Virus record (IMG/VR): IMGVR_UViG_3300042305_001673
Coordinates: 1-21,333 of that record
Source of the DNA: a virus
Direction: 5' to 3' (one strand)
Length of the DNA: 21,333 nucleotides
The notes beneath the pieces are model-generated. The model had not been told where the DNA came from. It saw only the letters and a list, made by a program, of their open reading frames with translations, and searched no databases. Shown here one piece after another: positions 2,614-17,400 of this stretch; within the stretch, counting starts at the first letter, position 1, and each line of letters starts with the position of its first letter. A program made the translations under genes and the position numbers.

Positions 2614-5598
2614 ATGTCGAATGGCGGATGGGGCTCAGGCTCCTGGGGTCAAGTTGCATGGGGGATGGGGCTCTATGATGGAGCCTCGTCTGAATCCGCA
2701 ACTGCCTCTGATTCCGCTTCTGCAAGATTAGTTTCCCCCCGCGCTGTCTCTGAGACGGCCACAGCCGCTGATGCAACGTCAGCGGTTTTTGCAGTACCCG
2801 CGTCTGTTTCTGAGTCTGCCACCGCAGCAGACTCGGTTTCGGCTAGGGAAATACTATTCCCGACAATATCTGAGACAGCAAACGCATCTGATGCTGTCTC
2901 TGTAGCCGCCAGCACGTTCAGACCGTCTATTGCTGAGACGGCAAGGGCATCGGATACAGCGTCTTCAGCCTTAGTTGTTAGGCCGTCAGTCGCAGAAACG
3001 GCCACTGCAGCGGACACGGTCTCCGCCACCGAGACACTACGCCCAACAGTCTCTGAGACTGCAGCGGCAGCAGATGCAACGGTAGTCGCGTCCAGCACGT
3101 TTAGGCCTTCTGTATCAGAGACAGCTAGAGCCAGTGACTCCGTATCAGTCGCAGGCAGCACGTTTAGACCGACTCTGTCAGAGACAGCAACGGCGGCTGA
3201 CTCTGTAACTGCCAGAGAAATACTAGTCCCAACGGTTGCCGAGACAAGCACCGCTTCGGACTCCGTATCGGTCGCCGCCAGCACATTCAGGCCAACGGTT
3301 TCTGAGTCTGCTACCGCAGCAGACACTACTTCATCGCGCACCGCCTTCGGTTCGTCGGTCTCAGAGACCACCACAGCGTCGGATGCTTCAACTGCAAGGC
3401 AGATATTCCAAGCCTACATAGGAACGTCTGGCTGGGGTTCTGGCGCTTGGGGCGGAGATCCTTGGGGAGGTTTGAACGACACAGCCGCGTCTATCTCTGA
3501 CTCGGTTGTTGCTTCGCCTGTTGCCAACGGCGCTGTTTCTGAGACTGCCAGGGCGTCAGACTCGGTATCTGTTGCTGCCAGCACGTTTAGGCCAACAGCT
3601 TCTGAGACGGCATCAGCGTCTGAAACGGTTGTAGCTAGTGCGACATTCGTTACGTCAGTCAGCGAGACAGCCAACGCTTCTGACAGCATTAGTGCGGCAC
3701 AGACAGCCAGAAGCACCGTATCAGAAACGGCAAACGCATCTGACTCCGTTGCTGCTGCGCAGGGCTTTACATCCGCAGTTTCAGAAACTGCCAGAGCCTC
3801 TGACAGTGTTAGCACAACGCAGACGTTTATTTCGTCTGTATCAGAGACGGCAAACGCTTCTGATTCCGTAGTTGCGCGTCAGACATTTGCCACGGCAGTT
3901 TCGGAAACGGCCAATGCGTCAGATGCAGTAGCGGCAGGGCAGTCATTCAGTACAAGTGCGTCCGAGACTGCGAGTGCTTCTGACTCAGTATCTGTAGCCG
4001 CCAGCACCTTCAACGCTTTTGTTGGAAGTTCTGGCTGGGGTTTTGGTGCTTGGGGTGAAGACCCGTGGGGCGGTTTAAACGACACCGCCGCAACTGCACT
4101 GGATGTAGTTTCTGCATCGCCTGCGTTTAATGCCAACGTATCTGAGTCTGCATCTGCCGCAGATGCTTTTGCGGTCGCCGCCAGCACGTTTAATGGGCTG
4201 GTTGCCGAAACTGCCACGGCAACAGACTCCGTAGCAGCCCGCCAAGTATTTGCAACGGCAGTAACAGAAACGGCCAATGCGGCGGATAGCGTTGTAGCTA
4301 CCCAAGCGTTCGTAGCGGCTGTATCTGAGACGGCAACGGCGGCAGACCAAACGCAGGCGTCTCAAGCGTTTACATCGGCTGTTTCTGAAACGGCTAGGGC
4401 ATCTGATACCGTTTCAGCGGCCCAGGCACCTACCTCAACAACTTCTGAAACCGCAACCGCATCTGACGCGGTTTCAACACAACAAGTCTTTGCCACAGCG
4501 GTCACAGAGAGTGCCACGGCTGCTGATAGCACATCAGCAGCACAGACTTTTGTAACCAGCGTAGCTGAAACAACCACAGCGGCTGACTCCGTATCTGTTG
4601 CCGCAAGTACCTTCAATGCCTACATTGGCACTCAAGGTTGGGGTTCCGGAGCCTGGGGCGAAGACCCGTGGGGTGGTCTAAACGACACTGCAGCTAGTGC
4701 TTCTGATGTCGTTGCTGCAGATCTAGCATTTGGCTCTGCAGTTTCTGAGGCAGCACAAGCCTCTGATGCCTTCGCTGTCGCGGCCAGCACGTTTAACCCA
4801 GCCGCAAACGAAACCGCTGCCGTCTTTGATGCTGCGTCTGCACAGCAAGTTTTTGCCACGGCAGTTTCTGAGAGTGCACAGGCGTCCGATGCTGTTGCGT
4901 CAGGGCTTCTCTCATCGGCCAGCGTCTCGGAGACAGCGCAAGCCAGCGATGTCGTTTCTGCTGGCAGCGTATTCAATGTAAGCGTCAGTGAAGGTGTAAC
5001 TGCTGCCGACGCAGTCACGACCACGACCATCACGCCCGCCAGCGTGAGTGAGACTGCACGAGCCGCAGACGCAGTAAACACCAGGGCTGACTGGCAAGTC
5101 AGCGTGAGCGAAGCCGCTCAGGCGATGGCGTTGTTTGAGGCGGGCAGGCTATTCCTTGCCTCGCTGCTGGAACAGTGTGGGGCGTTTGATTCAATCGTTG
5201 CCCAGAACCGCTGGCAGACCATTGACGACACGCAGAACCCTAACTGGCAAGTTGTCCCAGACGGACAGATTCCTGGGTGGCAGCACATCCAAGACTCGCA
5301 GACGCCTGGGTGGCAGCACATCAACGATACCCAGAGCCCTGCATGGCAATGCGCCACGACCGCTCAAACCCCAGCTTGGGTCTTGGTAACCGACACACAA
5401 GCGCCTGGGTGGCAGTGTGTCACCACCGCGCCATCCCAGCCGTGGCAGAATGTAGCAACTGCACAAGCGCCGGTATGGCAACCTACGCCCCCCGCCCCCC
5501 TTGACGGCTGGCAGAATGTAGACGATGATCAGTCTGCCGGGTGGCAAGATGTGGAGAGCCCTGAGTCAGCCGAGTGGGCTGATATTAATACGGGCTAA
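2614..5598 (+). CDS. Giant repeat protein: SETA repeats, Trp/Gly modules and 11-residue WQ array (994 aa)
   Basis: ATG 2614 follows the upstream TAA by 3 nt. The 994 residues contain almost no unique sequence. Residues 4-19 hold a GGWGSGSWG segment. From about residue 25 to 866 there are roughly 39 units of about 20 residues with consensus SETAxASDSVSAxxxF. These are interrupted by three modules of the form GWGxGAWGxDPWGGLNDTAA (starting at 3421, 4024 and 4627). Residues 867-994 are 12 units of exactly 11 residues with consensus WQxIxDxQxPx. Composition is Ala/Ser/Thr/Val-rich with one acidic residue pair per unit and almost no Cys or Lys. No signal peptide or TM segment is seen. A fibrous virion component (stalk, head fibre or decoration) is the best inference. 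Antisense and alternative-frame ORFs here are products of the repeat bias. Confidence 0.8.
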   Translation: MSNGGWGSGSWGQVAWGMGLYDGASSESATASDSASARLVSPRAVSETATAADATSAVFAVPASVSESATAADSVSAREILFPTISETANASDAVSVAASTFRPSIAETARASDTASSALVVRPSVAETATAADTVSATETLRPTVSETAAAADATVVASSTFRPSVSETARASDSVSVAGSTFRPTLSETATAADSVTAREILVPTVAETSTASDSVSVAASTFRPTVSESATAADTTSSRTAFGSSVSETTTASDASTARQIFQAYIGTSGWGSGAWGGDPWGGLNDTAASISDSVVASPVANGAVSETARASDSVSVAASTFRPTASETASASETVVASATFVTSVSETANASDSISAAQTARSTVSETANASDSVAAAQGFTSAVSETARASDSVSTTQTFISSVSETANASDSVVARQTFATAVSETANASDAVAAGQSFSTSASETASASDSVSVAASTFNAFVGSSGWGFGAWGEDPWGGLNDTAATALDVVSASPAFNANVSESASAADAFAVAASTFNGLVAETATATDSVAARQVFATAVTETANAADSVVATQAFVAAVSETATAADQTQASQAFTSAVSETARASDTVSAAQAPTSTTSETATASDAVSTQQVFATAVTESATAADSTSAAQTFVTSVAETTTAADSVSVAASTFNAYIGTQGWGSGAWGEDPWGGLNDTAASASDVVAADLAFGSAVSEAAQASDAFAVAASTFNPAANETAAVFDAASAQQVFATAVSESAQASDAVASGLLSSASVSETAQASDVVSAGSVFNVSVSEGVTAADAVTTTTITPASVSETARAADAVNTRADWQVSVSEAAQAMALFEAGRLFLASLLEQCGAFDSIVAQNRWQTIDDTQNPNWQVVPDGQIPGWQHIQDSQTPGWQHINDTQSPAWQCATTAQTPAWVLVTDTQAPGWQCVTTAPSQPWQNVATAQAPVWQPTPPAPLDGWQNVDDDQSAGWQDVESPESAEWADINTG
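2686..5211 (+). repeat. About 39 tandem ~60-nt units encoding SETAxASDS repeats
   Basis: Units are 19-21 codons long and begin at the Ser/Val-Ser-Glu-Thr position. DNA copies differ mostly at synonymous sites while the protein consensus persists, so the array looks old and selected rather than freshly amplified. A recurrent variant ending SVAAST-F marks unit 4, units 8 and 10, and the units flanking each Trp/Gly module. Confidence 0.85.
3421..4626 (+). repeat. Two direct 603-nt (201-codon) super-repeats inside the giant repeat gene
   Basis: The Trp/Gly module occurs at 3421, 4024 and 4627, exactly 603 nt apart each time. Each 603-nt block has the module (GWG...PWGGLNDTAA) followed by eight SETA units, the last with SVAASTFN just before the next module. 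After the third module a similar series of units runs for 585 nt into the WQ array and becomes degenerate at its end. The block preceding the first module is longer (804 nt between the first Trp of each). Confidence 0.85.
5212..5595 (+). repeat. 12 x 33-nt array encoding WQxIxDxQxPx
   Basis: Tryptophan codons fall every 33 nt from 5212 to 5575 with no insertion or deletion. Most units carry W-Q at positions 1-2, a hydrophobic residue at 4, Gln at 8 and Pro at 10. The final unit is cut to seven residues by the stop codon. The regular aromatic spacing suggests stacked beta turns. Confidence 0.9.
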
Positions 5599-5622
5599 GT
5601 TTTTGACCTTCTGAGGTAACCC

Positions 5623-7146
5623 ATGCCATCAACCTTTACGTCCAGTCTGCGACTGACCCTCCCTGCAACCGGCGAAAACGCCGGAACCTGGGGCAATCTG
5701 GTCAACACGGGCATCACGACCCTGATCGATACGTCGATTGCGGGGACGGCAAGCATCACCGTCGCTGGCACTGACTACACGCTCACCAACAACAACGGCA
5801 CGACAGACGAAGCTCGGGCCATGGTTATCAACGCCACCGGCACTCCGGGGGCTGCAAGAAACGTCATCTGCCCTGCTGCGAGCAAGATGTATGTCTTCCG
5901 CAATAACACCACGGGCGGCTTTGCGATGACGCTCAAGACCTCAGGGGGGTCGGGGATTGCCGTCCCTGCGGGGCAAAGTCGCCTGTTGTACTGTGATGGC
6001 ACCAACGTAGTTGAAGCGGTCAACGCCTTCAGTTCGCTGACGCTGGGCACAGCGCTTGGAGCCGTATCAGGCGGTACGGGCCTGACATCATCGGGAGCCA
6101 ACGGGAACGTCCTAACCAGCAACGGCACAACGTGGACTTCTGCTGCGCTGCCTGCTGGTGGCCTGACCTACATTTTCACAACCACCGCTGTCACGGCGAC
6201 CGACAAGCAGGGTGTTCTGACCAGCACTGCGGGTGGTTCGTTTACGGTCACTTTGCCCGCCACGCCAGCCACTGGCGCTCAGGTTGTGGTTGCTGATGCA
6301 GGTGCGTCATGGGGCACCAACAATTTGACGGTTGGCCGGAACGGATCGACTATCGGCGGACTTGCCCAGGATCTTGTGTGTGACATTACCGGGGTCAGTG
6401 TCCAGTTTGTTTACGACGGTACGACTTGGGAGGTTTATGCCCAGATTGGCGGGAACGGCGGTAATGCTGCAACTCAACCGGGTAACAACGCCTTCACTGG
6501 TGCAAACACCTTCTACAACGCCACGGGCCAGACATTCGGCACGGCGACATCAACCCAAGACGGCATCATCCTCGCAGGCCGTGCAGGTGGATCTTCTTCT
6601 TTCCGTGCAACCCTGCAGCCCACAACGCTGACGGCAAGCAGGACTTTGACGCTGCCTGACGCAACCAGCACGGTTGCGGTTCTGGGCCTTGCTCAGACCT
6701 TTACGGCTACTCAGACCTTCAGTGGCTCCAGCAGCGTGCTGGGAATGGTGCTCAACGATGCAGCAGAAGTCGCCACCATCAGCGCCACAGCAGCTACAGG
6801 CACGATCAACTACGACATCACCACGCAGTCAGTCCTGTATTACACCACGAACGCCTCGGCCAACTTTACGGTCAACCTGAGAGCCTCTTCAGGAACTACG
6901 CTGAACACGGCGTTGGCTACAGGCCAATCGGTCACGGTGGTGTTTTTGGTTACAAACGGCGGAACGGCGTACTACAACAACGTAGTGCAGGTTGACGGAA
7001 CTACGTCAGGAGTTACTACCAGATGGCAGGGCGGTACAGCGCCTACAGCGGGTAATGCTTCGAGCGTGGACATTTACTCTTACACGGTAGTAAAAACCGC
7101 TGCTTCAACGTACAGCGTGTTTGCTTCCCAGACGAGGTTTGCATAA
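5623..7146 (+). CDS. Tail-fibre-like protein with cyanophage-type C-terminal domain (507 aa)
   Basis: A GAGGT site (5613-5617) lies 5 nt before ATG 5623. The N-terminal 150 residues (LRLTLPATGENAGTWGNLVN, TLIDTSIAG, FRNNTTGGFAMTLKTSGG) are a conserved phage fibre domain. Around residues 150-175 is the GGTGLTSSGANGNVLTSNG linker found in many fibres and shared with the gene at 8879. A beta-rich middle follows. The last 120 residues, including SVTVVFLVTNGGTAYYNNVVQ, RWQGGTAPTAGNASSVDIYSY and a VFASQTRFA ending, match my memory of C-terminal domains of tail-fibre-type proteins in marine T4-like cyanophages and pelagiphages. It probably binds the virion through its N terminus and the host or another fibre through its C terminus. 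The gene starts the fibre block; its TAA overlaps the next ATG by one base. Confidence 0.8.
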   Translation: MPSTFTSSLRLTLPATGENAGTWGNLVNTGITTLIDTSIAGTASITVAGTDYTLTNNNGTTDEARAMVINATGTPGAARNVICPAASKMYVFRNNTTGGFAMTLKTSGGSGIAVPAGQSRLLYCDGTNVVEAVNAFSSLTLGTALGAVSGGTGLTSSGANGNVLTSNGTTWTSAALPAGGLTYIFTTTAVTATDKQGVLTSTAGGSFTVTLPATPATGAQVVVADAGASWGTNNLTVGRNGSTIGGLAQDLVCDITGVSVQFVYDGTTWEVYAQIGGNGGNAATQPGNNAFTGANTFYNATGQTFGTATSTQDGIILAGRAGGSSSFRATLQPTTLTASRTLTLPDATSTVAVLGLAQTFTATQTFSGSSSVLGMVLNDAAEVATISATAATGTINYDITTQSVLYYTTNASANFTVNLRASSGTTLNTALATGQSVTVVFLVTNGGTAYYNNVVQVDGTTSGVTTRWQGGTAPTAGNASSVDIYSYTVVKTAASTYSVFASQTRFA

Positions 7147-8486
7147 TGCCGATGCTTGGCACAAGAGGCGCGGCCTCTGCTCGGGGGTTTGGGGCATTCG
7201 CCTCGCTTGGTTCTCGGTATTGGATGGGAACCTTGGGGAGCACCGGAAGCGGCGATTTAGGATACGCAGTTGCTTTTGATTCACTAGGTTCTGTGTATCT
7301 CGCGGGCTTATCCAGTGGCGGGGGCCTTCAATTAGTTAAATACAGTTCAACCGGCCTTATCCAGTGGCAAAGGAAACTTGGCGGGATAAGCAGCAATGAT
7401 CTTGCATATGGCGTTGTAATTGACTCTTCTGATAATGTTTACATAGTTGGCACGCATTTTATAACATCTACTTATGATATTGTTTTGGCTAAATATAATT
7501 CAAGCGGCACTATTCAATGGCAAAGGAGATTGACAGGAGGGGGAGGCGGCCAAGGTGACGCTGGTTATGCCATAGCCGTCGATTCTTCCAGTAATGTTTA
7601 TGTTTGCGGAGAATCTAACGACTCAGGTTCTCCTGACATACAAATTGCTAAATATAATTCAAGCGGCACCATTCAATGGCAGAGGCGTCTGGACAGTTTT
7701 GCGTATTCAATTAATGGTGACGACAGAGGCTATGGAATAGCCGTTGATACATCTGGTAATGTTTATATTGGAGGTATTGCATCAAACGCTGTGTCAACTT
7801 TTGACGGGTTTATTACAAAATACAATTCTACCGGAACCATACAGTGGCAAAGAACACTAAATGTAACCAGTCAAAATACATACGTTTATGCAATAGCGGT
7901 AGATTCGTCTGGTAATCCTTACATTACAGGCCAGTGGCGTGATGCAGGAACTAACGAATTATTTGTAATTAAATATAATACAAGCGGAACACTTCAGTGG
8001 CAGAGAAGTTTAGGCGGTTCTGGCACTGGAGATGAGGAGGGTAAAGGTATCGCAGTAGACTCTTCCAGTAATGTTTATGTTTGCGGATTTTCTGCTGCTG
8101 CTACCGTTGATTTTCAAATAGCAAAATACGACACAAGTGGCACCATTCAATGGCAACGTAGTTTAAGCAGTAACAAGTCTGATTTTGGTGAAAATATAGC
8201 TGTAGATTCCTCTAATAATATGTACATCATAGGCAGTTCTAACGCAAGCACAAGTAGCTATGATTTTTTGTTCTCCAAACTACCAGACGATGGCTCAAAA
8301 ACAGGAACTTATACTGTGGGTGGGTATTCTTTTACTTACGCCTCAACAAGTTTAACTGATGCCGCCGCAACACTTACTTCTTCGGCTTCTTCTTTGACGG
8401 ACTCCGCATCAACTTTGACGGACGCTGCATCGTCATTGACTGATGCAGCAACAACCCTTACTTCTTCCATTACAGCAATACCATGA
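7146..8486 (+). CDS. Seven-blade beta-propeller (SBBP-like) protein with heptad tail (446 aa)
   Basis: The start ATG 7146 shares one base with the preceding TAA. After a short N-terminal region (TRGAASARGFGAFASLGSRYW, about 35 residues), residues 37-384 contain seven copies of a roughly 50-residue repeat with core AVDSSGNVYVxG...AKYNSSGTIQWQR. This is the SBBP-type beta-propeller repeat, and seven copies fit one closed propeller, with the early RYWMGTLG strand as a candidate closure. Residues 402-443 are six heptads of the xLTDAAx type. Such propellers often bind sugars or proteins, so a receptor-binding or adhesin role beside the fibre genes is reasonable but unproven. Base composition is much lower in G+C than flanking genes (16 of 60 in 7441-7500), a sign of transfer. 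The stop overlaps the next gene by 4 nt. Confidence 0.78.
   Translation: MPMLGTRGAASARGFGAFASLGSRYWMGTLGSTGSGDLGYAVAFDSLGSVYLAGLSSGGGLQLVKYSSTGLIQWQRKLGGISSNDLAYGVVIDSSDNVYIVGTHFITSTYDIVLAKYNSSGTIQWQRRLTGGGGGQGDAGYAIAVDSSSNVYVCGESNDSGSPDIQIAKYNSSGTIQWQRRLDSFAYSINGDDRGYGIAVDTSGNVYIGGIASNAVSTFDGFITKYNSTGTIQWQRTLNVTSQNTYVYAIAVDSSGNPYITGQWRDAGTNELFVIKYNTSGTLQWQRSLGGSGTGDEEGKGIAVDSSSNVYVCGFSAAATVDFQIAKYDTSGTIQWQRSLSSNKSDFGENIAVDSSNNMYIIGSSNASTSSYDFLFSKLPDDGSKTGTYTVGGYSFTYASTSLTDAAATLTSSASSLTDSASTLTDAASSLTDAATTLTSSITAIP
7254..8295 (+). repeat. Seven beta-propeller blade repeats
   Basis: The seven blades start near 7254 and recur every 47-56 codons. Two stretches are nearly identical in DNA: 7488-7522 with 7647-7681 (one mismatch, spacing 159 nt), and 7581-7610 with 8058-8087 (one mismatch, spacing 477 nt, three times 159). 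This suggests blade duplication or exchange that is fairly recent. Confidence 0.8.
8349..8474 (+). repeat. 6 x 21-nt heptad repeat (xLTDAAx) at the propeller C-terminus
   Basis: Six seven-codon units follow without gaps; Leu-Thr is fixed in every unit, with Asp-Ala-Ala, Asp-Ser-Ala or Ser-Ser next. Only Ala-Ile-Pro remains before the stop. G+C rises again here relative to the blades. Confidence 0.85.
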
Positions 8487-8875
8487 GCACCTACATCAAA
8501 CTATCCACCCAAGAGTATCCCCGTCATATCGGGGATATTGAACTTGACCCTGCAGGCATGGCGGACTACGCCATCGTGGAGTGGGTTGATCCTCCGGCGT
8601 TTGACCCGCAAACGCAGCGCCGCGCTCAACAAGCGCCTCAACAACAGGGCGACAAGTGGGTCATGGTGTGGGAAGTGACGCAGATTCCTTTTGCAGAGAT
8701 GGCGGCAAAGGTACGCACAAACCGCAACCAGAAGCTCAAGGACTCCGATTGGACTCAGTTGATTGACGCCCCGGTGGACAAAGCCGCATGGGCGGTGTAC
8801 CGCCAAGCACTGCGAGACATCACTACGCAGCCTGGATTCCCTTGGGAAGTTCAGTGGCCCGCACAGCCGGAGTAA
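8483..8875 (+). CDS. Tail assembly chaperone-like protein (130 aa)
   Basis: ATG 8483 overlaps the previous stop in an ATGA. The N-terminal 45 residues (IKLSTQEYPRHIGDIEL) are followed by a Gln-rich segment (QTQRRAQQAPQQQGDKW) and a C-terminal part with VRTNRNQKLKDSDWTQLID, WAVYRQALRDITTQPGFP and EVQWP. That C-terminal pattern (R..RN..L..SDWTQL.D.P....W..YRQALRDI..Q.GFP..V.WP) is characteristic of the Phage_tail_APC family (tail assembly chaperone) and tail-fibre assembly proteins. It lies directly between two fibre-like genes, which fits a role in folding or attaching fibres. The family call is from the motif; which fibre it serves is not visible. Confidence 0.78.
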   Translation: MSTYIKLSTQEYPRHIGDIELDPAGMADYAIVEWVDPPAFDPQTQRRAQQAPQQQGDKWVMVWEVTQIPFAEMAAKVRTNRNQKLKDSDWTQLIDAPVDKAAWAVYRQALRDITTQPGFPWEVQWPAQPE

Positions 8876-8878
8876 CAC

Positions 8879-9703
8879 ATGGCAAACCTTTCCAACATCA
8901 TCACGCCGACCAATGTTCTGACGGCGACCAGCACCAACACGGTCACCAACAAGACGATCAGCGGTGCAAGTAATACCATCACGAATATCCCGTTAAGCAC
9001 AGGCGTGACGGGTACGTTGCCGGTAGCTAACGGTGGGACAGGCGCGGCAACTCTTACCGCAAACAATGTATTGCTGGGCAATGGCACTTCAGCGCTTCAG
9101 GCGGTGGCTCCGGGTACAAACGGCAATGTGCTGACCAGCAATGGAACCACATGGACAAGTACTGCGGGTCCGGTGGCTGGGCTTACGTTGCTTCAGACCG
9201 TTACTGCATCTAGTAGCGCCACCGTTGATTTAGAAACCGGGATCGGATCTACATATGATAACTATTTGATAGTTTTTACCGGTATTGCACCTTCAGACGA
9301 TAGTGTTATTTTGTATGCACGATTAAAAATTAATGGTACGTATCAATCAAGTGATTACTCAACCGTTAATATTTACGGGAGTACCGATTCCGGTACTATA
9401 TCCAAAAATAGCGAAAGCACCGGTTTTACCGTAGCCAGATATAATGTTGGAAATGCAAGTGGGAGAACTGTGCAGGGCCAACTTTGGTTTGGTTCTCCGA
9501 CAAGCACGTCAATTTATAAATCAGCAAACTGGGCTTCAACAGCATTCAACCCAACGTCGTATGGAACAAATGTAGCCTCCTACAATACAGGAGGCGGTTT
9601 ATATAACGGCGGCGCACAAGCTCTGACCGGTGTCAGATTCTTCTTTGGGGCAGGTAACATTGCGTCTGGCGTATTTAGACTTTACGGCATCAGAAATAGT
9701 TAA
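8879..9703 (+). CDS. Tail-fibre-like protein with AT-rich, probably exchanged C-terminal domain (274 aa)
   Basis: GGAG at 8869-8872 precedes ATG 8879 by 6 nt. Residues 1-45 (LSNIITPTNVLTATSTNTVTN) form an attachment-type region. Residues 46-100 contain the fibre linker (ANGGTGAATLTANNVLLGNG, then GTNGNVLTSNGTTWTS). From about residue 105 a separate beta-rich domain begins (TVTASSSATVDLETGIGSTY, DNYLIVFTGIAP, LYARLKING) and ends RLYGIRNS. The N-terminal third is GC-rich like its neighbours; the C-terminal two thirds are AT-rich (17 G+C of 60 at 9301-9360). The boundary is near 9200, right after the linker. The protein is likely a short fibre whose C-terminal tip contacts the host. The tip was probably swapped in. 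Confidence 0.78.
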   Translation: MANLSNIITPTNVLTATSTNTVTNKTISGASNTITNIPLSTGVTGTLPVANGGTGAATLTANNVLLGNGTSALQAVAPGTNGNVLTSNGTTWTSTAGPVAGLTLLQTVTASSSATVDLETGIGSTYDNYLIVFTGIAPSDDSVILYARLKINGTYQSSDYSTVNIYGSTDSGTISKNSESTGFTVARYNVGNASGRTVQGQLWFGSPTSTSIYKSANWASTAFNPTSYGTNVASYNTGGGLYNGGAQALTGVRFFFGAGNIASGVFRLYGIRNS

Positions 9704-9712
9704 GGAGTGATC

Positions 9713-9970
9713 ATGGGACGACATCACATGACGGCTGAAGGGGCGATTCCCTTCACCCCGGAAGAAGAAGCCGAGTGGGACGCTCAAGAGGCTGCGTGGG
9801 TGGCTGAAGCTAAAAATCGCCACAACGCTGAGATGAAACAGAAGCGCGAAGCCGCGTACAAGGCTGAAGCTGACCCGTTGTTCTTTAAGGCGCAGCGCGG
9901 TGAAGTCACTGCGCAGGGGTGGGAAGCCAAGGTGGCCGAGATCAAAGCCCGCTTCCCTTACCAGGAGTGA
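9713..9970 (+). CDS. Small charged phage protein of the fibre block (85 aa)
   Basis: AGGAG at 9703-9707 lies 5 nt before ATG 9713; a GTG at 9707 in frame overlaps that site and is less likely to be the start. The protein is strongly helical and rich in Glu, Ala and Lys, with IPFTPEEEAEWDAQEAAW near the N terminus and DPLFFKAQRGEVTAQGW, then IKARFPY at the C terminus. The 'IPFTPEEEAEWDA' and 'DPLFFKAQRGE' segments recur in small proteins encoded next to fibre genes of many phages. A fibre-assembly or chaperone-like role is likely from position, but no activity can be read from the sequence. Confidence 0.72.
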   Translation: MGRHHMTAEGAIPFTPEEEAEWDAQEAAWVAEAKNRHNAEMKQKREAAYKAEADPLFFKAQRGEVTAQGWEAKVAEIKARFPYQE

Positions 9971-9998
9971 AGACACGATCACCACCAAGGGTTAAAAA

Positions 9999-10271
9999 AT
10001 GACCTGGGCAGATACCCTCAAAGCCGTCATACCCATCGTGGTGGCTTGTATCGCATGGCTGCTGGGGCAGGTGAACTCTTTCTCTGAGCGGCTGACCAAG
10101 ATCGAAGGCTCTATGCCTGCGCTCATCACGGCCCAAGGTACACCGACTGACAGTCCTCTGTCTGCTGAGAAGCGTGCCATCCTCAAAGAGCAACTGATGA
10201 CGCACATCAATGAGCTTCAGGTTAAGGTCCGACTGCTTGAAGAGCGCGAACGTATCAAAGGGGCTAAGTGA
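9999..10271 (+). CDS. One-TM small protein of the lysis cassette (90 aa)
   Basis: CAAGG at 9986-9990 precedes ATG 9999 by 8 nt. Residues 7-24 (LKAVIPIVVACIAWLLGQ) form one membrane segment, followed by a charged, probably coiled-coil helix (FSERLTKIEG; INELQVKVRLLEERERIKG). A Pro/Thr break (GTPTDSPLS) separates the two helices. Topology suggests a short N terminus with the coiled coil on one side of the inner membrane. The gene lies directly before the holin-like gene, whose ATG shares a base with this stop. A role as holin regulator (antiholin-like) or accessory lysis protein is inferred from context alone. It has no lipobox and no signal peptide cleavage site, so it does not look like a standard spanin. 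Confidence 0.72.
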   Translation: MTWADTLKAVIPIVVACIAWLLGQVNSFSERLTKIEGSMPALITAQGTPTDSPLSAEKRAILKEQLMTHINELQVKVRLLEERERIKGAK

Positions 10272-10741
10272 TGTTTGAGTCGCTAATCGGTGGTTTGTTC
10301 GGCGGTATCCTGCGCCTCGCTCCAGAGGTGTTCAAGCTCTTTGACAAGAAGAATGAACGGGCGCATGAGCTTCGCATGGTGGAAGCTGAGATGGAGTTTG
10401 CTAAGATCCGTGGCGAGATCGCTATGCGGCAGGTTGAAGCGCAGATGACGATGGCCGAGATGGACACGATGGCCCAGGCGTTCAAGGAGCAGTCCGAGAC
10501 CGCCAAGAATGCCGGATGGTTTGTTTCTGCAATCTCAGCGCTGGTGCGCCCGATGGTCACCTACGCCTTCCTGGCGCTGTACGCCTCTGTGAAGATTGCT
10601 GCCTTCCTGATCGCCATAGACCAGAACGGTAACTGGAAAGAGGTCTTGGTCACGATGTGGGGTGCAGACGATCTTGCCGTCTTCAACATGATCATCTCCT
10701 TCTGGTTTGTCGGACGGGTGTATGAGCGGTCCAGCAAGTGA
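10271..10741 (+). CDS. Three-TM holin-like protein (GTA_holin_3TM type)
   Basis: ATG 10271 overlaps the previous TGA by one base; an in-frame GTG at 10268 lies inside the preceding gene and is less attractive. The 156 residues start with a hydrophobic, possibly membrane-inserted segment (ESLIGGLFGGILRLAPEVF), then about 50 charged helical residues (ERAHELRMVEAEMEFAKIRG), and end with two clear hydrophobic segments (AISALVRPMVTYAFLALYAS plus KIAAFLIAI, and VFNMIISFWFVGRVY). The 'RPMVTY' before the TM pair is a mark of the holin family known from gene transfer agent release (GTA_holin_3TM). It would permeabilise the inner membrane and let the neighbouring lysozyme reach the peptidoglycan. The lysozyme gene overlaps it by 20 nt. 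Confidence 0.8.
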   Translation: MFESLIGGLFGGILRLAPEVFKLFDKKNERAHELRMVEAEMEFAKIRGEIAMRQVEAQMTMAEMDTMAQAFKEQSETAKNAGWFVSAISALVRPMVTYAFLALYASVKIAAFLIAIDQNGNWKEVLVTMWGADDLAVFNMIISFWFVGRVYERSSK

Positions 10742-11183
10742 GGCTGTAAATATTGCTGCTGCTCTGTGTCGGCCTTTTGAAGGGCTGCGGCTGAAGCCTT
10801 ACATCTGCCCAGCGGGCTACCCCACGATTGGCTATGGAACCGTTTTCAAGCCAGACGGCACCAAGGTGACGATGGAGCACCCCGAGATCACCAAAGAGAT
10901 TGCAGACGAGTGGTTGCTGTCTGAGTTACAAACAAACTATATGGCGGGGGTTTTGAAGGCTTCGCCGGGCTTGCTTGCGTTTCCGAAAGCCCTTGGGGCG
11001 ATGGCCGACTTTGCTTACAATCTTGGCGTAGCCCGGTATCGCGGCAGCACCCTGCGGCGTAAGATTGACGAGCAGGACTGGGAAGGTGCCAAGGAGCAGT
11101 TGGCCCTGTGGGTGCGCGGTGGCGGCAAAGTACTGCCCGGTCTGGTCAAGCGTAGAGCCGCCGAGTCGGCACTGCTGGGGTAA
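10722..11183 (+). CDS. Endolysin, GH24 lysozyme (N-acetylmuramidase)
   Basis: The product cleaves peptidoglycan glycan strands at the end of infection. From ATG 10722 it has 153 residues, the usual length for phage GH24 lysozymes. The catalytic triad pattern E-8-[D/C]-5-T is visible as E20 (FEGLRLKPY), C29 and T35 (YPTIGYG), with Cys in the middle position as in several phage enzymes of this group. Other family marks are FAYNLGVARYRGSTLRRKI and a final GLVKRRAAE. An in-frame TTG at 10707 would add five residues; ATG 10722 is preferred though its ribosome site (GACGGG) is weak and it overlaps the holin gene by 20 nt, implying coupled translation. No SAR or signal peptide is present, so it depends on the holin. 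Confidence 0.92.
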   Translation: MSGPASEAVNIAAALCRPFEGLRLKPYICPAGYPTIGYGTVFKPDGTKVTMEHPEITKEIADEWLLSELQTNYMAGVLKASPGLLAFPKALGAMADFAYNLGVARYRGSTLRRKIDEQDWEGAKEQLALWVRGGGKVLPGLVKRRAAESALLG

Positions 11184-11185
11184 AC

Positions 11186-13039
11186 ATGCCACTCAAGAAA
11201 CTTCAGTTGAAGTCGGGGGTAAACCGCGAAGGAACCCGCTACTCCACCGAGGGCGGATGGTTCTCCTGCGACAAGATTCGTTTCCGTCAAGGCACACCCG
11301 AGAAGATCGGTGGTTGGCAACGCATTTCTAGCGAGACCTACAACGGCATCTGCCGCGCTCTGTGGCAGTGGGCTACGCTTGCTGGCGTTCCATATCTTGG
11401 CGTCGGTACAAACACCAAGTACTACATCGCCTATGGTGGGTCGTACTACGACATCACGCCTGTTGTCTCTACGGTAACTTTGACCAATCCGTTCACCACC
11501 ATATCTGGCTCTGCCACGGTAACGGTTTCTGACGTTTCACACGGCGCTACTGACGGAACATTTGTCACGTATTCTGGAGCTACTGCTGTTGGTGGCTTGA
11601 CGCTGAATGGCGAGTACCAGATTACCTACGTTGATGTAGACACCTACACGATCACTGCCGCAAGCAATGCTTCTTCCAATGCCACGGGAGGTGGCACGGT
11701 CACGGCTGCGTATCAACTAAACGCAGGCTCTGCAATTGCTGTTCCGCTGTCTGGATGGGGCGCAGGTCCGTGGGGGTCGGGCGCGTGGGGCATAGGAACA
11801 TCTTCCAACAACCCAATCCGCATCTGGAATCACCAGAACTTCGGTCAAGACTTGATCTACGGCCCCAAGGGCGGGGCGATGTACTACTGGGACGCCACCA
11901 CCGGGCTGATTTCTCGTGGGGTAGCGCTGACCTCCTTGTCCGGAGCAACAGATGTACCGACCGTGCAAACGCTGTTCATGGTGTCTGATGCGTCACGGTT
12001 CACGATAGCTTTTGGGTGCAACGACTACGGGTCATCTGACATCGACCCCATGCTGATTCGCTGGTCGGATCAGGAAAGCGCGGTCAACTGGACCCCAGCA
12101 GCGACCAACCAAGCGGGCAGTCTGCGCCTGTCGCACGGCTCAAGAATTGATGCCACCCTGCAAACCAGACAGGAAATTTTGGTTTGGACAGACACATCGG
12201 TGTACGGTCTTCAGTACTTAGGCCCGCCTGTTGTCTGGGGCTCACAGCTTCTGGCCGATAACGTCTCCATTGTCAGTGACCGTGCTGTAGCGTTGGCTGC
12301 TGGTGTGGCGTACTGGATGGGAGAAGACAAGTTTTACACGTACGACGGTCGTGTAAATACACTTAGCTGTGACCTGCGCCAGTACATTTTTAGTGATATC
12401 AACTTGGATCAGTACAGCCAAGTCTGCGCCGGGACCAACGAACAATTTAACGAGGTCTGGTGGTTTTACTGCTCTGCCAGCAGTACCGCTATCGACAGGT
12501 ATGTTGTGTACAACTACCTTGAGAAGGTTTGGTACTACGGCAACCTGGGGCGCACTGCCTGGACAGACATCGGTGTCACTTCAAACTTCCCGATTGCTGC
12601 AACCTACGTAAACAATCTTGTCCAGCACGAGACTGGTAACGACGACAACGCCACTGCGTCAACGCTCCCGATTGAAGCCTACATCACTTCGTCTGAGTTT
12701 GACATTGACGACGGCGACAGGTTTGGTTTTGTCTGGCGGGTGTTGCCTGATGTGACTTTCCGTGGATCCAGTACTGCATCTCCCAGCGCCACCATGACGC
12801 TCCTGCCCCTGCAAAACTCTGGCTCGGGCTACAACTCCCCAGCCTCGCTGGGTGGGTCGGACAACGGCGTGGTCACTCGCACTGCAACGGTGCCTATCGA
12901 AGCCTTCACGGGCCAAGTAAACATCCGGGTGCGGGGCAGGCAGATGTCCATCAAGATGGCCTCGGATGGGTTGGGTGTGCAGTGGCAGATGGGCGCTCCG
13001 CGTCTGGATATTCGGCCTGATGGCAGGCGCGGGTCATGA
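11186..13039 (+). CDS. Tail nozzle-like structural protein (617 aa)
   Basis: ATG 11186 follows the lysozyme stop by two bases. The N terminus carries KSGVNREGTRYSTEGGWFSC and IRFRQGTPEKIGGWQ, a signature I recall in a widespread structural protein of podovirus-like phages. Residues about 95-180 look like an inserted beta domain (VSDVSHGATDGTFVTYSGA, GEYQITYVD). Residues 190-202 are GWGAGPWGSGAWG. The middle and C-terminal parts are beta-rich, with RWSDQESAVNWTP, WTDTSVYGLQYLGPP and YNYLEKVWYYG, consistent with a beta-propeller such as T7 gp12 (tail tubular B) or P22 gp10. It would extend the tail below the adaptor at 758. The structural role is fairly safe; the exact family is inferred. Its end overlaps the next start by 4 nt. 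Confidence 0.72.
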   Translation: MPLKKLQLKSGVNREGTRYSTEGGWFSCDKIRFRQGTPEKIGGWQRISSETYNGICRALWQWATLAGVPYLGVGTNTKYYIAYGGSYYDITPVVSTVTLTNPFTTISGSATVTVSDVSHGATDGTFVTYSGATAVGGLTLNGEYQITYVDVDTYTITAASNASSNATGGGTVTAAYQLNAGSAIAVPLSGWGAGPWGSGAWGIGTSSNNPIRIWNHQNFGQDLIYGPKGGAMYYWDATTGLISRGVALTSLSGATDVPTVQTLFMVSDASRFTIAFGCNDYGSSDIDPMLIRWSDQESAVNWTPAATNQAGSLRLSHGSRIDATLQTRQEILVWTDTSVYGLQYLGPPVVWGSQLLADNVSIVSDRAVALAAGVAYWMGEDKFYTYDGRVNTLSCDLRQYIFSDINLDQYSQVCAGTNEQFNEVWWFYCSASSTAIDRYVVYNYLEKVWYYGNLGRTAWTDIGVTSNFPIAATYVNNLVQHETGNDDNATASTLPIEAYITSSEFDIDDGDRFGFVWRVLPDVTFRGSSTASPSATMTLLPLQNSGSGYNSPASLGGSDNGVVTRTATVPIEAFTGQVNIRVRGRQMSIKMASDGLGVQWQMGAPRLDIRPDGRRGS

Positions 13040-14406
13040 CGATCTGGTCCACCATCACCAAGAAGTTTCGTGCGCCGCCGCTGCCGAAGCCGACGATCCA
13101 GTACGATTCAACGTATCTTGACAACCTTGTCAACGTCCTGCGCCTGTACTTCAACCAAATAGACAACCTGCTGGAGCAGATCGTGACGACTACAGGAAGC
13201 CCAGTACCAATTTCCATAGGCGGGACCAACGTCGATGCCTTTGGGCGGCTAAGAACCAGCGCTCCTTACACGATTTTTGACTCTCAGAACCGCTATGCTA
13301 TTGACAATCAGTTTGACACCAGCACGGCTACTGGAGGCTCAACAACGTACCTGCCTAACGAATCATCTGTGCGGATGGATGTCACCACCTCCAGTGGTTC
13401 TGAAGTTGTAAGGCAGACCTACAGGTGCATGCCGTACCAGCCGGGTAAGGGGTTGTTGTGTTTGGCTACGTTCGTGATGAACTCCCCTAAGACCGGGCTA
13501 CGCCAGCGAGTCGGGTACTTTGGAACCCAGAACGGCGTGTTCATTCAGCAAGCGGACAGCGCTGTCTCCTTCGTCCTGCGGTCTTACATCTCAGGATCTG
13601 TCAGCGATGCGCGGACGGTCAACCAAGCGGATTGGAACGGCGACAAACTTGATGGGACGGGGGACTCCGGCTACACCCTGGACCTGACCAAAGCACAAAT
13701 TTTGTGGATGGACTTTGAGTGGTTGGGAGTTGGATCTGTTCGTTGTGGGTTCATCATTGACGGCAACTACATCGTCTGCCACACGTTTGAGAATGCAAAC
13801 GACATCACTTCTGTTTACATGACCACGGCAATTTTGCCGGTCAGGTACGAGATTACCAACACCGCAGCGACGGCAAGCGCTTCGTCCATGAAGCAAATTT
13901 GCTCCTCGGTGGTTTCAGAAGGCGGGTACGAGCAGACATCCATTGAGCACGTTGCCCGCAGGACAACGACCAGAACTTCGATCAGCACGACATTTCTCCC
14001 TTTGGTGTCCATCCGGCTGGCTTCCACGGCGCTGAACGCAGTGGTGCTCCCTGCAAAATTTAACGTGATGCCGACCTCATCAGGGGATGACTTTGAGGTT
14101 ATTCTGGCAAAGAACAGCACGGGTTTGACTGGGGCCTCCTGGGCTGCGGTTGCAAGCGATGCCAACGTGGAAATGGACACTTCTGCCACGGCCATGACGG
14201 TAGGCACCATCGTAGACCTGCAGTATGTGAAAGCCTCTAACCAGTCCAGCGGGTCGATCAACCAGACTGCTGGGTACAACTGGGATCTTCAGTTGGGCTC
14301 TTCCTTGACGGGGACGAGTGATATCTATACGCTGGGCATCCGGGTGCTGTCGGGCTCCTCCGGCGCGGCCATCGGGTCTTTGACCTTCTACGATTTGACG
14401 CAGTGA
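13036..14406 (+). CDS. Conserved structural protein with DAFGRLR motif (456 aa)
   Basis: ATG 13036 overlaps the previous stop (ATGA). Residues 1-50 include a helix, STYLDNLVNVLRLYFNQID, also seen as a small separate protein in other phages as far as I recall. From residue 67 a second domain reads DAFGRLRTSAPYTIFDSQNR, then GGSTTYLPNESSVRM, YQPGKGLLCLATF and QRVGYFGTQNGVFIQ. This pattern is known to me from virion proteins of large cyanophages and aquatic phages, and it suggests a beta jelly-roll. The C terminus (SGSINQTAGYNWDLQLGSS) is another beta region. It is most likely a tail-associated or adhesin-like virion protein acting with the nozzle. No enzyme motif stands out. Confidence 0.72.
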   Translation: MTIWSTITKKFRAPPLPKPTIQYDSTYLDNLVNVLRLYFNQIDNLLEQIVTTTGSPVPISIGGTNVDAFGRLRTSAPYTIFDSQNRYAIDNQFDTSTATGGSTTYLPNESSVRMDVTTSSGSEVVRQTYRCMPYQPGKGLLCLATFVMNSPKTGLRQRVGYFGTQNGVFIQQADSAVSFVLRSYISGSVSDARTVNQADWNGDKLDGTGDSGYTLDLTKAQILWMDFEWLGVGSVRCGFIIDGNYIVCHTFENANDITSVYMTTAILPVRYEITNTAATASASSMKQICSSVVSEGGYEQTSIEHVARRTTTRTSISTTFLPLVSIRLASTALNAVVLPAKFNVMPTSSGDDFEVILAKNSTGLTGASWAAVASDANVEMDTSATAMTVGTIVDLQYVKASNQSSGSINQTAGYNWDLQLGSSLTGTSDIYTLGIRVLSGSSGAAIGSLTFYDLTQ

Positions 14407-14417
14407 TAGGTTAAGAA

Positions 14418-17400
14418 ATGGCTCTTCCGCTGTATCAAACGCTATCTTCTCAAGAACAGTTTGAGCGTCTTGGCGCAGCCATGCCGACCGGGTGGGAAAC
14501 CACCACGGATCCACTTGAGAGAATCAATTTACTCAACCAACTGGGTGTTAGTGGCGGTCAGCTAAAAGATGTCCTTGGGTACTCTCAGGATGACATTAAC
14601 TGGATGCAAAGCAAGGGGTTGGGGGTTCCTGCTCCTACTCCAGCCCCAATACAACAGAACGCTTATCAAACCCTGGCACAAGAGCCTGGATTTGACGCCG
14701 ATGCATATACATACGATAACCTCGTAGCCGACTACGTTGCCCCAACGCCGACACCTGCTCCAACTCCGGCTCCCACGCCAGCCCCGGTTTCAGCAACCAC
14801 TGCTCAAGCAACGGGTAATGCGTTCAAAGATTACATATACTCCGGAGATGCAAATGCCGCGCTTGCGACACAAAGAGGCATTCAGTACGCAAGAGAGCAA
14901 GGTTGGACACCAGAGCAAACAGTACAAAACTGGAACCAAGCGCTTGGGACGCAATTTACTCTAGATGATTACTTTAGAGTAACTGGACTTACCCCAGATG
15001 AAGCGTCAGATATAAATGACACTCAACCAACATTTTCTAATTTTGGTGATGAAGGCAGTTGGGATTTTGGGGCTGGTGCTGTTTATGATGCGCAGACCAA
15101 TCTTATTAAAGCTCCAGGCACGGTTTTTCAAAGTGGCAATGACGCTATTGTTTCTGATGAATTGTTTTGGAATCAACATAGTGTCACTGGTGCAGACCTA
15201 CAAAAACGTATTCAAGATACCCAAGCGCAAGGGCAACGCGCTGGTGTAGTTATTACGCCTTACGCGGTATTTCAAGGCAAAGCCACAAACCAGCAGCTTC
15301 TTGATGAAGTTAAGAACTCTGGCACTGATTTTGTAACAATTGACCCTTATTACCTTGGATTTGGTGCTTCATCAAAAGAATTGTTTGATTGGGCAAAAAG
15401 TTTTATCCCACAAGTTACTGCGCTTGGTAAAGAAGTAAAACTTGTCACACAAGGTTTTGCGCCAAAAGGTCAGGAACAACAAACGCTTGAGCACAATCAA
15501 AAAATGCTTGCCCTGCCAGGGGTAAGCGAATTTATTAACTTTGGTCTTGAAGACGCTAAAGATTTGCAGGGCGACCCAAACTGGGTAACTATTGGGAACG
15601 ACTACACCAAAACGCGGCCTAACATAAACGCAGCAAGTAGCGCGTCTGAGGGCATTGCGTCTTTAGTAACATCAAACGCCACCGCTCCTGCCGCTCCTGC
15701 CGCTGCTGTCTCCGATCCGGTTTACACATGGACCGGCCAAGGTGGTGTTGGTGGGGATATATCTTCACTTGGGGGAGACTACAAAACCCCGGAGCAAAGA
15801 GCAGAAGAGCTTGCACAACAAATTACGGCGCAATGGCAAAGCTACGGTATTAACCCTGATGTTCAGGGCATCAATCGGGCAAACGAACTCGCGCAAATTC
15901 TTGTTAACTACGGCATAACTGACCTGTCAAAGCTAGGCATTACTGAAACACCGTATGAGGAGTTGGTTAATTCCGTTACCGGCGAAGGTGGTCAGGATAG
16001 CTGGTCAACAGTTACAAGGAACCGTGGGCAACTTACATACGGCGATCAAACATTTGGACGTTTAGGCGGGTTTGGAAGTGGCGGGGAGCGAGAGTTTTCT
16101 GCGCCTCAAGAATACTTACAGCAATCAGACCCAGGCAGGTACGGTCTTGGGTACTCTGCTGCGGGCAAAGGGTGGACAGAGTTTGAGGTAGTTAAAGATG
16201 CTTCTGGCAAAGCTGTAATTGTTCCACGTTGGGGGTCAAGTAGTGACCTTGATCCCGGCTTAATCCAAGTGCTGGCTCTTGCTGGGAATTTTCTTGCTCC
16301 GGGGATATCTTCTGCGCTGGCTTCTACACTCGGCGCAACTGGCGCTAACATTGCCACGCAAGCGTTGATTCAAGGCACTCTTGGCGGGCTTGGTGCAGAA
16401 GCTCAGGGTGGCAGTTTTGGCTCTGGCTTTGGCAAAGGTGCAATTACAGGTGGTCTGACAGCAGGCATTGGTTCTCTTACAACACCGTTTGCAAACTCTA
16501 TTGGCGCGGATGTATTGGCCGCTGGTGGCCCTCAATGGTTGGCTGATGCCGCTACAGCAGCAGTGCGTGCCGGTGCTGGTGCGTTACCTTCGGCAATAGT
16601 CTCCGGTAATTTTGGCAACGTCCTGACTTCTGCACTCACAGCAGGAGCCACATCAGGCATCACGGCTGGCCTGTCAGACCTGACCGGGTTTACACAACCT
16701 CAGATCAGTGCTGCTGTAAACATCGCTCAAGGCGCTGCGTCTGGTGACCTACAAAAGATTTTGGCCGGGGCAAGTGCGTTTACAGACAGTCAGATTCCTG
16801 GCCTTGCCTCCAAAGCGTTGACGCTGAAAACGGCGGTTGAATCTGGAGATCCGACAAGGATCATGTCTGCCATGCAGGGCTTCGGCTCTGCGATGGATGC
16901 GTACAACAACCAGCAGACAAACGCAGCCGCAAACGCTACGGCCTATTCTGACCCATCACGATCTAGTGACACTCCAACAAATGAAGCTGCGTATCTAGAC
17001 CAACAAGCATTCCTAGACGCCCTTGAAGGTGCATCTGCGCTGGGTGGTGGCGCAGACTACGAAAAGTTCCTGGTTGCTGCATCTGATCCTAAACAACTAG
17101 CAGAGATACTTCGCGGCGTTGCTACACCATCCGATACACAGGATTTAATTGCTAGGATACAAAGGCAGGCGATTAACCTGCAAGCGGAGACTGACCCGCG
17201 TACTAGAGCAGTAATGCTCAATGACTTGCAAAATCAAGTACGCGCTCTATCTGGGCAATCGCCTGTAATCTACGATATTAAAGCTGGCAGCACGCCTTCA
17301 ACTTCAGGAACAGTTCGGCCAGGAGGAATATCGTCTCTTCCGACTGGTGGGGTATCTATTAATATGATGGATCCTTCAACTACTACTGGTGGGGGCCTGC

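What the first reader, a model, noticed from the sequence alone, without database searches (positions are those of the whole stretch)
9180..9703. Composition break inside a fibre gene just after the linker
The first third of the gene is GC-rich and the rest AT-rich (17 of 60 G+C at 9301-9360), with the change near 9200, right after the NVLTSNGTTWTS linker. This looks like exchange of a receptor-binding tip at a conserved linker.
Basis: partly seen in the sequence, partly recalled or inferred. Interest (0 to 1): 0.52.

Follow-up and report, generated by a model that had tools for sequence, protein, structure and literature searches.

The report
Swappable phage tail-fibre tip and chaperone
This virus of bacteria carries a small tail-fibre gene whose outer end was brought in as a ready-made piece, together with the part of a helper protein that goes with it, a natural way for such viruses to change the tip thought to touch their host.

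Summary
The composition break is real: 55.7% G+C before 9179, 42.9% after, and 17 of 60 at 9301-9360. It lies at synonymous sites too (tip GC3 0.36 against 0.64 expected from the window's own codon usage). Against the closest relatives with another version of the tip (four contigs, one identical protein), identity falls from 93% to 40% after residue 96 (support interval 90-96), at the end of the NVLTSNGTTWTS linker. The same N-module carries 8 tip clusters among 15 proteins; the same tip family sits behind 20 clusters of N-termini among 55 ORFs.

It crosses the gene boundary and takes the N-half of the next gene, a two-domain tail-fibre chaperone: 61 of 66 tip loci have that N-half, while the chaperone C-halves fall into five types. 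The upstream propeller fibre and its chaperone follow the same rule. The conserved block between cassettes is the C-half of one chaperone plus the N-module of the next fibre; relatives show filled and empty sites.

Tip exchange in tail fibres is known; the cross-gene cassette is a modest variant. Receptor binding and the route of recombination are inferred.

The parts
7146..8486 (+). Upstream fibre with SBBP beta-propeller tip (446 aa): second, independent tip/chaperone pair; AT-rich from 7255
   Evidence: PF06739 6e-35; 7255-8360 at 40.9% G+C; GC3 z -14
8483..8686 (+). N-half of tail-fibre chaperone 1, specific to the propeller tip; mostly beta-strands in the model
   Evidence: All detected homologues lie directly behind a propeller-type tip; AF2 strands within 2-67
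8687..8872 (+). Conserved C-half of chaperone 1 (PF16778 Phage_tail_APC); helical in the model; first part of the conserved block between cassettes
   Evidence: PF16778 8.4e-21, 74 bits against cut-off 26.6; conserved with variable N-halves
8879..9043 (+). Fibre N-module, residues 1-55 (MANLSNII...GGTG); ends at joint 1
   Evidence: DNA match ends at 9042-9044 in L019-L023 and L025-L036; 17 distinct proteins start so
9044..9166 (+). Spacer/linker, residues 56-96, with NVLTSNGTTWTS at 9125-9160; joint 2 at its end
   Evidence: Identity change point after residue 96; linker also in gene 5623-7146 at 6106-6141
9167..9700 (+). Exchangeable tip, all-beta (phrog_14820), low GC3, residues 97-274; putative receptor-binding domain
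   Evidence: phrog_14820 6.7e-14; AF2 pLDDT 89.1, pTM 0.84; 20 N-terminus clusters
9707..9970 (+). Chaperone 2 (87 aa from GTG 9707; ATG at 9713 more likely): N-half (about 9713-9802) travels with the tip, C-half of type 3
   Evidence: shares phrog_5714 with chaperone 1; PF16778 not detected in it
9999..10271 (+). Conserved downstream flank gene (90 aa); in empty-site relatives it follows a PF16778-type chaperone directly

Best explanation
The gene is a short tail fibre built from an N-module (residues 1-55, presumed to attach the fibre to the virion), a repetitive spacer/linker (56-96) and a beta-sandwich tip (97-274). The tip was acquired by recombination as part of a cassette that starts in the linker and ends inside, or at the end of, the next gene. 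That next gene is a dedicated intermolecular chaperone: its N-half fits this tip family, and its C-half is a generic assembly domain. The cassette therefore keeps tip and chaperone N-half together while leaving the phage's own fibre N-module outside. Shown here: modularity, junction places, co-inheritance of tip and chaperone N-half, exchangeable chaperone C-halves, and whole-cassette presence or absence between conserved flanks. Inferred: that the tip binds a host receptor, that the downstream protein folds or trimerises the tip, and that homologous recombination in the conserved chaperone-C/fibre-N block (rather than illegitimate recombination at the linker) does the exchange. The AT-rich synonymous sites are read as the mark of a pool of tips circulating among phages of other composition, only partly adapted to the new genome.
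For: Against L006 the identity change point is after residue 96, 93% to 40%, 0 of 500 shuffles. The anchor carries 8 tip clusters among 15 proteins of 150 aa or more; the tip lies behind 20 N-terminus clusters among 55 complete ORFs. Window and L004 tips are not sisters: AU p 0.0165. Among 41 tip pairs with a DNA match and enough upstream sequence, 23 matches begin 0-60 nt before residue 106 (in the linker), 4 at 61-120, 14 further up. Of 38 with enough downstream sequence, all 38 run at least 72 nt past the fibre stop: 9 end at +60-120 (inside the chaperone), 23 at +121-330, 6 beyond. 61 of 66 tip loci have the chaperone N-half motif; pairs with different C types have 62% N-half and 22% C-half identity (shuffled 24 and 21). 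Every detected homologue of the chaperone 1 N-half follows a propeller-type tip. Empty and filled sites with the same 3-nt spacing. Fibre N-part GC3 follows its genome with slope 0.93, the tip only 0.53 (57 loci). The chaperone 1 model has a beta N-half and helical C-half, the layout reported for Pam3 gp25 (PMC9608196, abstract and passages).
Against: Tip GC3 is below its genome in 50 of 57 loci, so part of the AT-richness may be intrinsic. Other genes of the window are equally AT-rich at third positions. Tip identity and chaperone N-half identity correlate only weakly across 55 loci (Mantel r 0.09, p 0.044), so co-inheritance rests on presence, not on fine co-evolution. The chaperones were picked by an N-half motif, so their N-half conservation is partly by construction. 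The DNA match pairs form 10 connected sets, not independent events. The linker DNA is not specially conserved. The AU test is modest and involves long branches. No pair with near-identical anchor DNA and an unrelated tip was found; relatives with other tips are at most 87% alike in the anchor.
Confidence: 0.83

Rival explanations
1. Fast divergence in place: the tip is vertically inherited but evolves quickly under selection by the host, so identity drops at the domain border without any exchange.
For: In L004-L007 the tip is a homologue (43% identical), not an unrelated domain.
Against: Window and L004 tips are not each other's closest relatives (AU p 0.0165); unrelated tips on the same anchor and the same tip on 20 N-terminus clusters; low GC3 at synonymous sites.
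Confidence: 0.06
2. The composition break is an intrinsic property of this tip family (codon choice for translation speed, mRNA structure or folding), not a trace of foreign origin, even though tips are exchanged.
For: Tip GC3 lies below the genome in 50 of 57 loci; L004's tip shows the same break (0.34 against 0.64 expected).
Against: In the 13 loci with genome GC3 under 0.3 there is no consistent break (lower in 7 of 13); tip GC3 still follows genome GC3 with slope 0.53; several other tips on the same anchor (L033, L034, L036, L044, L045, L047) show no break.
Confidence: 0.25
3. A programmed diversity system: an invertible segment with alternative tips, or a diversity-generating retroelement.
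For: Several fibres with shared N-modules in one phage are typical of such systems (recalled).
Against: No inverted repeats of 20 nt or more in the window; cassette copies in relatives lie on one strand as direct repeats; none of the window proteins scanned against Pfam matched a reverse transcriptase or recombinase. The record is a 21 kb fragment.
Confidence: 0.03
4. Assembly artefact: the contig joins the 5' end of one fibre to the 3' end of another.
For: Metagenomic contigs with shared anchors are prone to chimaeras (recalled).
Against: L003, a contig of other length, is 98.9% (not 100%) identical over 3879-11460, across the joint; four contigs from four datasets have the same architecture with another version of the tip.
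Confidence: 0.02

Closest known systems
Pam3 gp24/gp25 tail fibre and chaperone (PMC9608196; abstract and passages read) and phage Mu Tfa (North et al. 2019, seen only as cited and described there)
   Same: Chaperone gene directly behind the fibre; variable N-domain that binds the fibre, conserved helical C-domain; beta N-half and helical C-half in the AF2 model of chaperone 1
   Different: No structural match to those chaperones was returned; here the two halves are seen to be exchanged separately at the DNA level, the N-half going with the tip
Shared fibre and chaperone modules of Alteromonas phages A5 and V22 (PMC10579305, abstract and passages; PMC7289586, passages)
   Same: Fibre and cognate chaperone shared between distant phages, read by the authors as horizontal transfer
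   Different: There whole host-recognition modules are shared; here the unit is the 3' part of a fibre gene plus the 5' part of a chaperone gene
[quoted passage not shown]
   Same: Conserved N-terminal anchor, exchangeable C-terminal specificity domain
   Different: The passages read describe single proteins; here the exchanged piece crosses into a second gene
phrog_14820 and Pelagibacter phage HTVC019P, HTVC010P and HTVC034P proteins
   Same: Same tip family, in neighbouring copies
   Different: Annotated as hypothetical or of unknown function; no link with a chaperone given in those records

Membership tests
phrog_14820 (tip family) | Profile match over most of the domain | tested here: met
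   6.7e-14 over residues 87-271; 61 of 67 aligned tips match
PF16778 Phage_tail_APC | Profile score above the gathering cut-off, chaperone 1 (8483-8875) | tested here: met
   74 bits against 26.6
PF16778 Phage_tail_APC | Same test for the focal chaperone 2 (9707-9970) | tested here: not met
   No match at E 0.01; its counterpart in L006 scores 75.2 bits. It is called a chaperone by its shared N-half and position, not as a PF16778 member
Two-domain tail-fibre assembly chaperones (Tfa of Mu, gp25 of Pam3) | Gene directly downstream of the fibre | tested here: met
Two-domain tail-fibre assembly chaperones (Tfa of Mu, gp25 of Pam3) | Variable N-half tied to the fibre, conserved C-half | tested here: met
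   Chaperone 1; for chaperone 2 the N-half is shared with the tip and the C-half is one of five types
Two-domain tail-fibre assembly chaperones (Tfa of Mu, gp25 of Pam3) | Beta N-domain and helical C-domain of the known fold | tested here: inconclusive
   AF2 secondary structure of chaperone 1 fits; no Foldseek match at E 0.001, VIA rows cover mainly residues 68-130 with Z under 5; the C-half matches 2kz6, an uncharacterised protein, at 1.8e-6
Two-domain tail-fibre assembly chaperones (Tfa of Mu, gp25 of Pam3) | Binds the fibre tip and is needed for its folding | not testable with these tools
   Needs co-expression
Receptor-binding tail fibre with exchangeable tip | Conserved N-terminus with unrelated C-termini in relatives | tested here: met
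Receptor-binding tail fibre with exchangeable tip | C-terminal domain binds a host receptor | not testable with these tools
   Only a weak resemblance of the model to sandwich domains (best Z 8.4; galectins 6-7), which the tool warns may be a common arrangement

The most novel reading that the evidence does not exclude
In aquatic phages the natural unit of tip exchange is a cassette out of register with genes: the 3' part of a fibre gene plus the 5' part of its chaperone gene, bounded by a conserved chaperone-C/fibre-N block that recurs as a direct repeat and lets cassettes be gained, lost and multiplied by homologous recombination, perhaps helped by the homing endonuclease genes found beside the chaperone in several relatives.
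Probability: 0.35. Interest if true: 0.6.

Novelty: new variant of a known kind. Interest (0 to 1): 0.42.

Why it matters
Modular tail fibres are well known, but the pairing rule seen here (tip plus N-half of its chaperone, with the C-half exchangeable) gives a sequence signature for matching tip families with their cognate chaperones in metagenomes, suggests a role for phrog_14820 (now of unknown function), and implies that a tip moved without the right chaperone half may not fold. It also shows where natural crossovers fall: in the stalk linker and inside the chaperone gene.

Tried and rejected
A search with the tip alone as a single sequence found only 4 loci; the alignment search found 130, of which 80 were kept. 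The 36-nt linker as a DNA-level recombination site within the genome was tested and not supported. Fine co-evolution of tip and chaperone N-half was tested by Mantel and is weak (r 0.09). Composition alone as proof of foreign origin was rejected, because other genes are as AT-rich at third positions. Fold of the tip: no PDB match at E 0.001, no sequence relative of known structure worth naming, VIA best Z 8.4 with GH32 beta-sandwiches and galectins at 6-7; not used as evidence of sugar binding. Mu Tfa and Pam3 gp25 did not appear among matches of the chaperone 1 model, which does not exclude them. Inverted repeats of 20 nt or more: none in the window. The large gene 14418-19478 against PADLOC: nothing. 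Literature: nine answered searches listed no paper that, by title or start of abstract, describes a fibre-tip plus half-chaperone cassette; most subscription journals are not held.

Rows dropped before counts: L052, L059, L107, L136, L158 and L211 as second views of contigs already counted; three tip loci without the landmark (L219, L251, L280) left out; five tip loci without the chaperone motif (L218, L240, L253, L255, L286; L240 is cut off 91 nt downstream) counted as misses in 61 of 66; six of 63 loci with under 600 nt of other ORFs or under 40 codons of N part left out. The 18 pairs were chosen by me from the 48. Loci lists were capped at the best 80 of 579, 444 and 130.

Full report
Setting. 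The window is a 21,333-base virus record with structural genes of a tailed phage; gene 13036-14406 is closest to Phage DSL-LC04 (61.5%) and also matches HMO-2011 and cyanophages. The finding lies in gene 8879-9703 (274 aa). Upstream are a beta-propeller fibre (7146-8486) and a PF16778 tail assembly chaperone gene (8483-8875); downstream an 87-aa gene (9707-9970) and a conserved 90-aa gene (9999-10271).

Observation. The break is as described: 167/300 G+C at 8879-9178, 225/525 at 9179-9703, 17/60 at 9301-9360. The change point is 9224, reached by 7 of 2000 codon shuffles. It also holds at synonymous sites: tip GC3 0.358 against 0.639 expected from its amino acids and the window's codon usage (z -8.1), while residues 1-55 and the next gene are as expected. 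The same low GC3 occurs in the propeller fibre and in two large genes, so composition is a hint, not proof.

Conservation. 49 related loci were found in IMG/VR, with 28 distinct proteins. Against L006 (same protein in L004, L005 and L007) the identity change point is after residue 96 (2-lnL interval 90-96), 93% to 40%, 0 of 500 shuffles. In DNA the match runs at 79% to 9213, then fails but for a short piece at 9678-9795, and resumes at 9999 with 83-96%. In L019-L023 and L025-L036 the DNA match of the N-module ends at 9042-9044 (residue 55, after GGTG), and in L033/L034 it resumes at 9996 with 91-92%. So there are two joints, one after the N-module and one at the linker. Seventeen distinct proteins start with this N-module; the 15 of 150 aa or more fall into 8 tip clusters.

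The tip elsewhere. An alignment of tips reached 130 loci, of which 80 were kept, giving 65 distinct ORFs. Of these, 55 are complete with at least 45 residues before the tip, and their first 40 residues form 20 clusters. The junction is mostly a variant of GTSGQVLTSNGSGAPTWTTPSSGALTLL. Among tip pairs with a DNA match over at least 300 nt, 23 of 41 matches begin 0-60 nt before residue 106, 4 at 61-120 and 14 further up. In register, mean identity over 18 chosen pairs rises from 49% to 67% to 86% across the three 30-nt bins around the landmark, from a background of about 32-36% further up. The window and L004 tips are not sisters (AU p 0.0165).

The cassette crosses the gene border. All 38 tip pairs with enough downstream sequence stay alike for at least 72 nt past the fibre stop: 9 matches end at +60-120, 23 at +121-330, 6 beyond. 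In 61 of 66 tip loci the next gene begins with a chaperone N-half of the form M.RYHATAEGNIPFTAEEEAEWDAQEAAW; of the five others one is cut off. The C-halves of the 58 complete ones fall into 5 types of 31, 12, 9, 3 and 3 members; the largest is the PF16778-like C-half, the window's own is a type of 3. Pairs of different C type are 62% alike in the N-half and 22% in the C-half, shuffled controls being 24% and 21%. The motif used to pick them makes N-half likeness partly circular; the mechanical listing of next ORFs, made without it, shows the same picture.

The neighbour pair repeats the rule. Every detected homologue of the chaperone 1 N-half (8483-8686) lies directly behind a propeller-type tip (about ten distinct contexts by my reading of 16 rows, duplicates merged), some without a detectable homologue of the C-half (L010, L040). 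Across phages the C-half of PF16778 chaperones is conserved (mostly 70-82%) with different N-halves. The AF2 model of chaperone 1 has its strands within 2-67 and helices at 70-87 and 100-115, the layout reported for Pam3 gp25.

Filled and empty sites. The conserved C-half ends 3 nt before either the fibre N-module (14 of 14 distinct copies) or the 90-aa gene (9 of 10, the tenth 2 nt); 55 of 80 distinct copies are followed by other genes and one by none. L063, L066, L067, L095 and L098 have chaperone then 90-aa gene, with no N-module fibre between. L006 has chaperone, fibre with this tip family, second chaperone with the same C-half (83% identical over 168 nt), then the 90-aa gene. L098 has the window's type of propeller fibre and chaperone with an empty site. 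The focal fibre is thus an optional cassette. Two C-half copies per contig occur in 13 of 123 contig views (views of one contig counted apart).

Composition and exchange. Across 57 loci fibre N-part GC3 follows the rest of the locus with slope 0.93, the tip with slope 0.53. The tip is lower in 50 of 57, but in only 7 of 13 loci with GC3 under 0.3. A shared pool with partial adaptation explains the slope; a residual intrinsic AT preference would explain why tips tend to be lower.

Structure and function. The tip model (residues 85-274) is confident and all-beta (pLDDT 89.1, pTM 0.84). It has 101 BFVD matches at E 0.001 or better, the listed ones mostly unnamed phage proteins, and no clear solved relative. 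In named phages the family occurs in Pelagibacter phages and one uncultured podovirus. Receptor binding is inferred from position and exchange, not shown.

Drivers. NUMOD3 homing-endonuclease motifs exceed the cut-off in 5 of 32 records searched; in L026, L063 and L086 the gene lies in the fibre/chaperone region. This is suggestive only; no rate elsewhere was measured.

Known context. Modular receptor-binding proteins (PMC10684548, PMC8262889), shared fibre and chaperone modules (PMC10579305, PMC7289586), two-domain chaperones (PMC9608196) and variable tail genes with homing endonucleases in natural phage populations (PMC7468147, passages) are in print. The searches named in Tried and rejected did not show the cross-gene cassette in print. 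I therefore call it a new variant of a known kind, of moderate interest.

Noticed in passing
window 14418-19478, AT-rich part 14853-15620: A 1686-aa gene with an AT-rich segment (GC3 0.31 against 0.64 expected), no Pfam match in its first 694 aa and no PADLOC match, and a Pro/Thr-rich repeat region near 18450-19350 with extreme GC skew.
   Followed up: partly
window 2614-5598: A 994-aa gene made of about 20-residue SETATAADSVSA-type repeats with a 603-nt higher-order repeat holding a Gly/Trp-rich stretch; no Pfam match.
   Followed up: no
L026 3945-4490, L063 405-1088, L086 3073-3726: NUMOD3 homing-endonuclease-like genes in the fibre/chaperone region of relatives; L063's also has a GIY-YIG domain. 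L006 4023-4499 looks similar by eye but has no Pfam match.
   Followed up: partly
L058, L208, L209 (Pelagibacter phages HTVC019P, HTVC034P, HTVC010P): The tip family occurs as three neighbouring short genes per genome, almost without an N-part: a tandem tip array.
   Followed up: partly
L291-L294: Four relatives of the tip in bacterial assemblies (two contigs of Nitrosomonas sp. Nm34, two MAGs), perhaps prophages or co-assembled phage.
   Followed up: no
L034 2518-3482, L061 1823-2646, L126 5044-5999: Between fibre or chaperone and the 90-aa gene these relatives carry genes that look by eye like 2OG-Fe(II) oxygenases followed by a small conserved gene; DSL-LC04 has an annotated one in its fibre region.
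   Followed up: no
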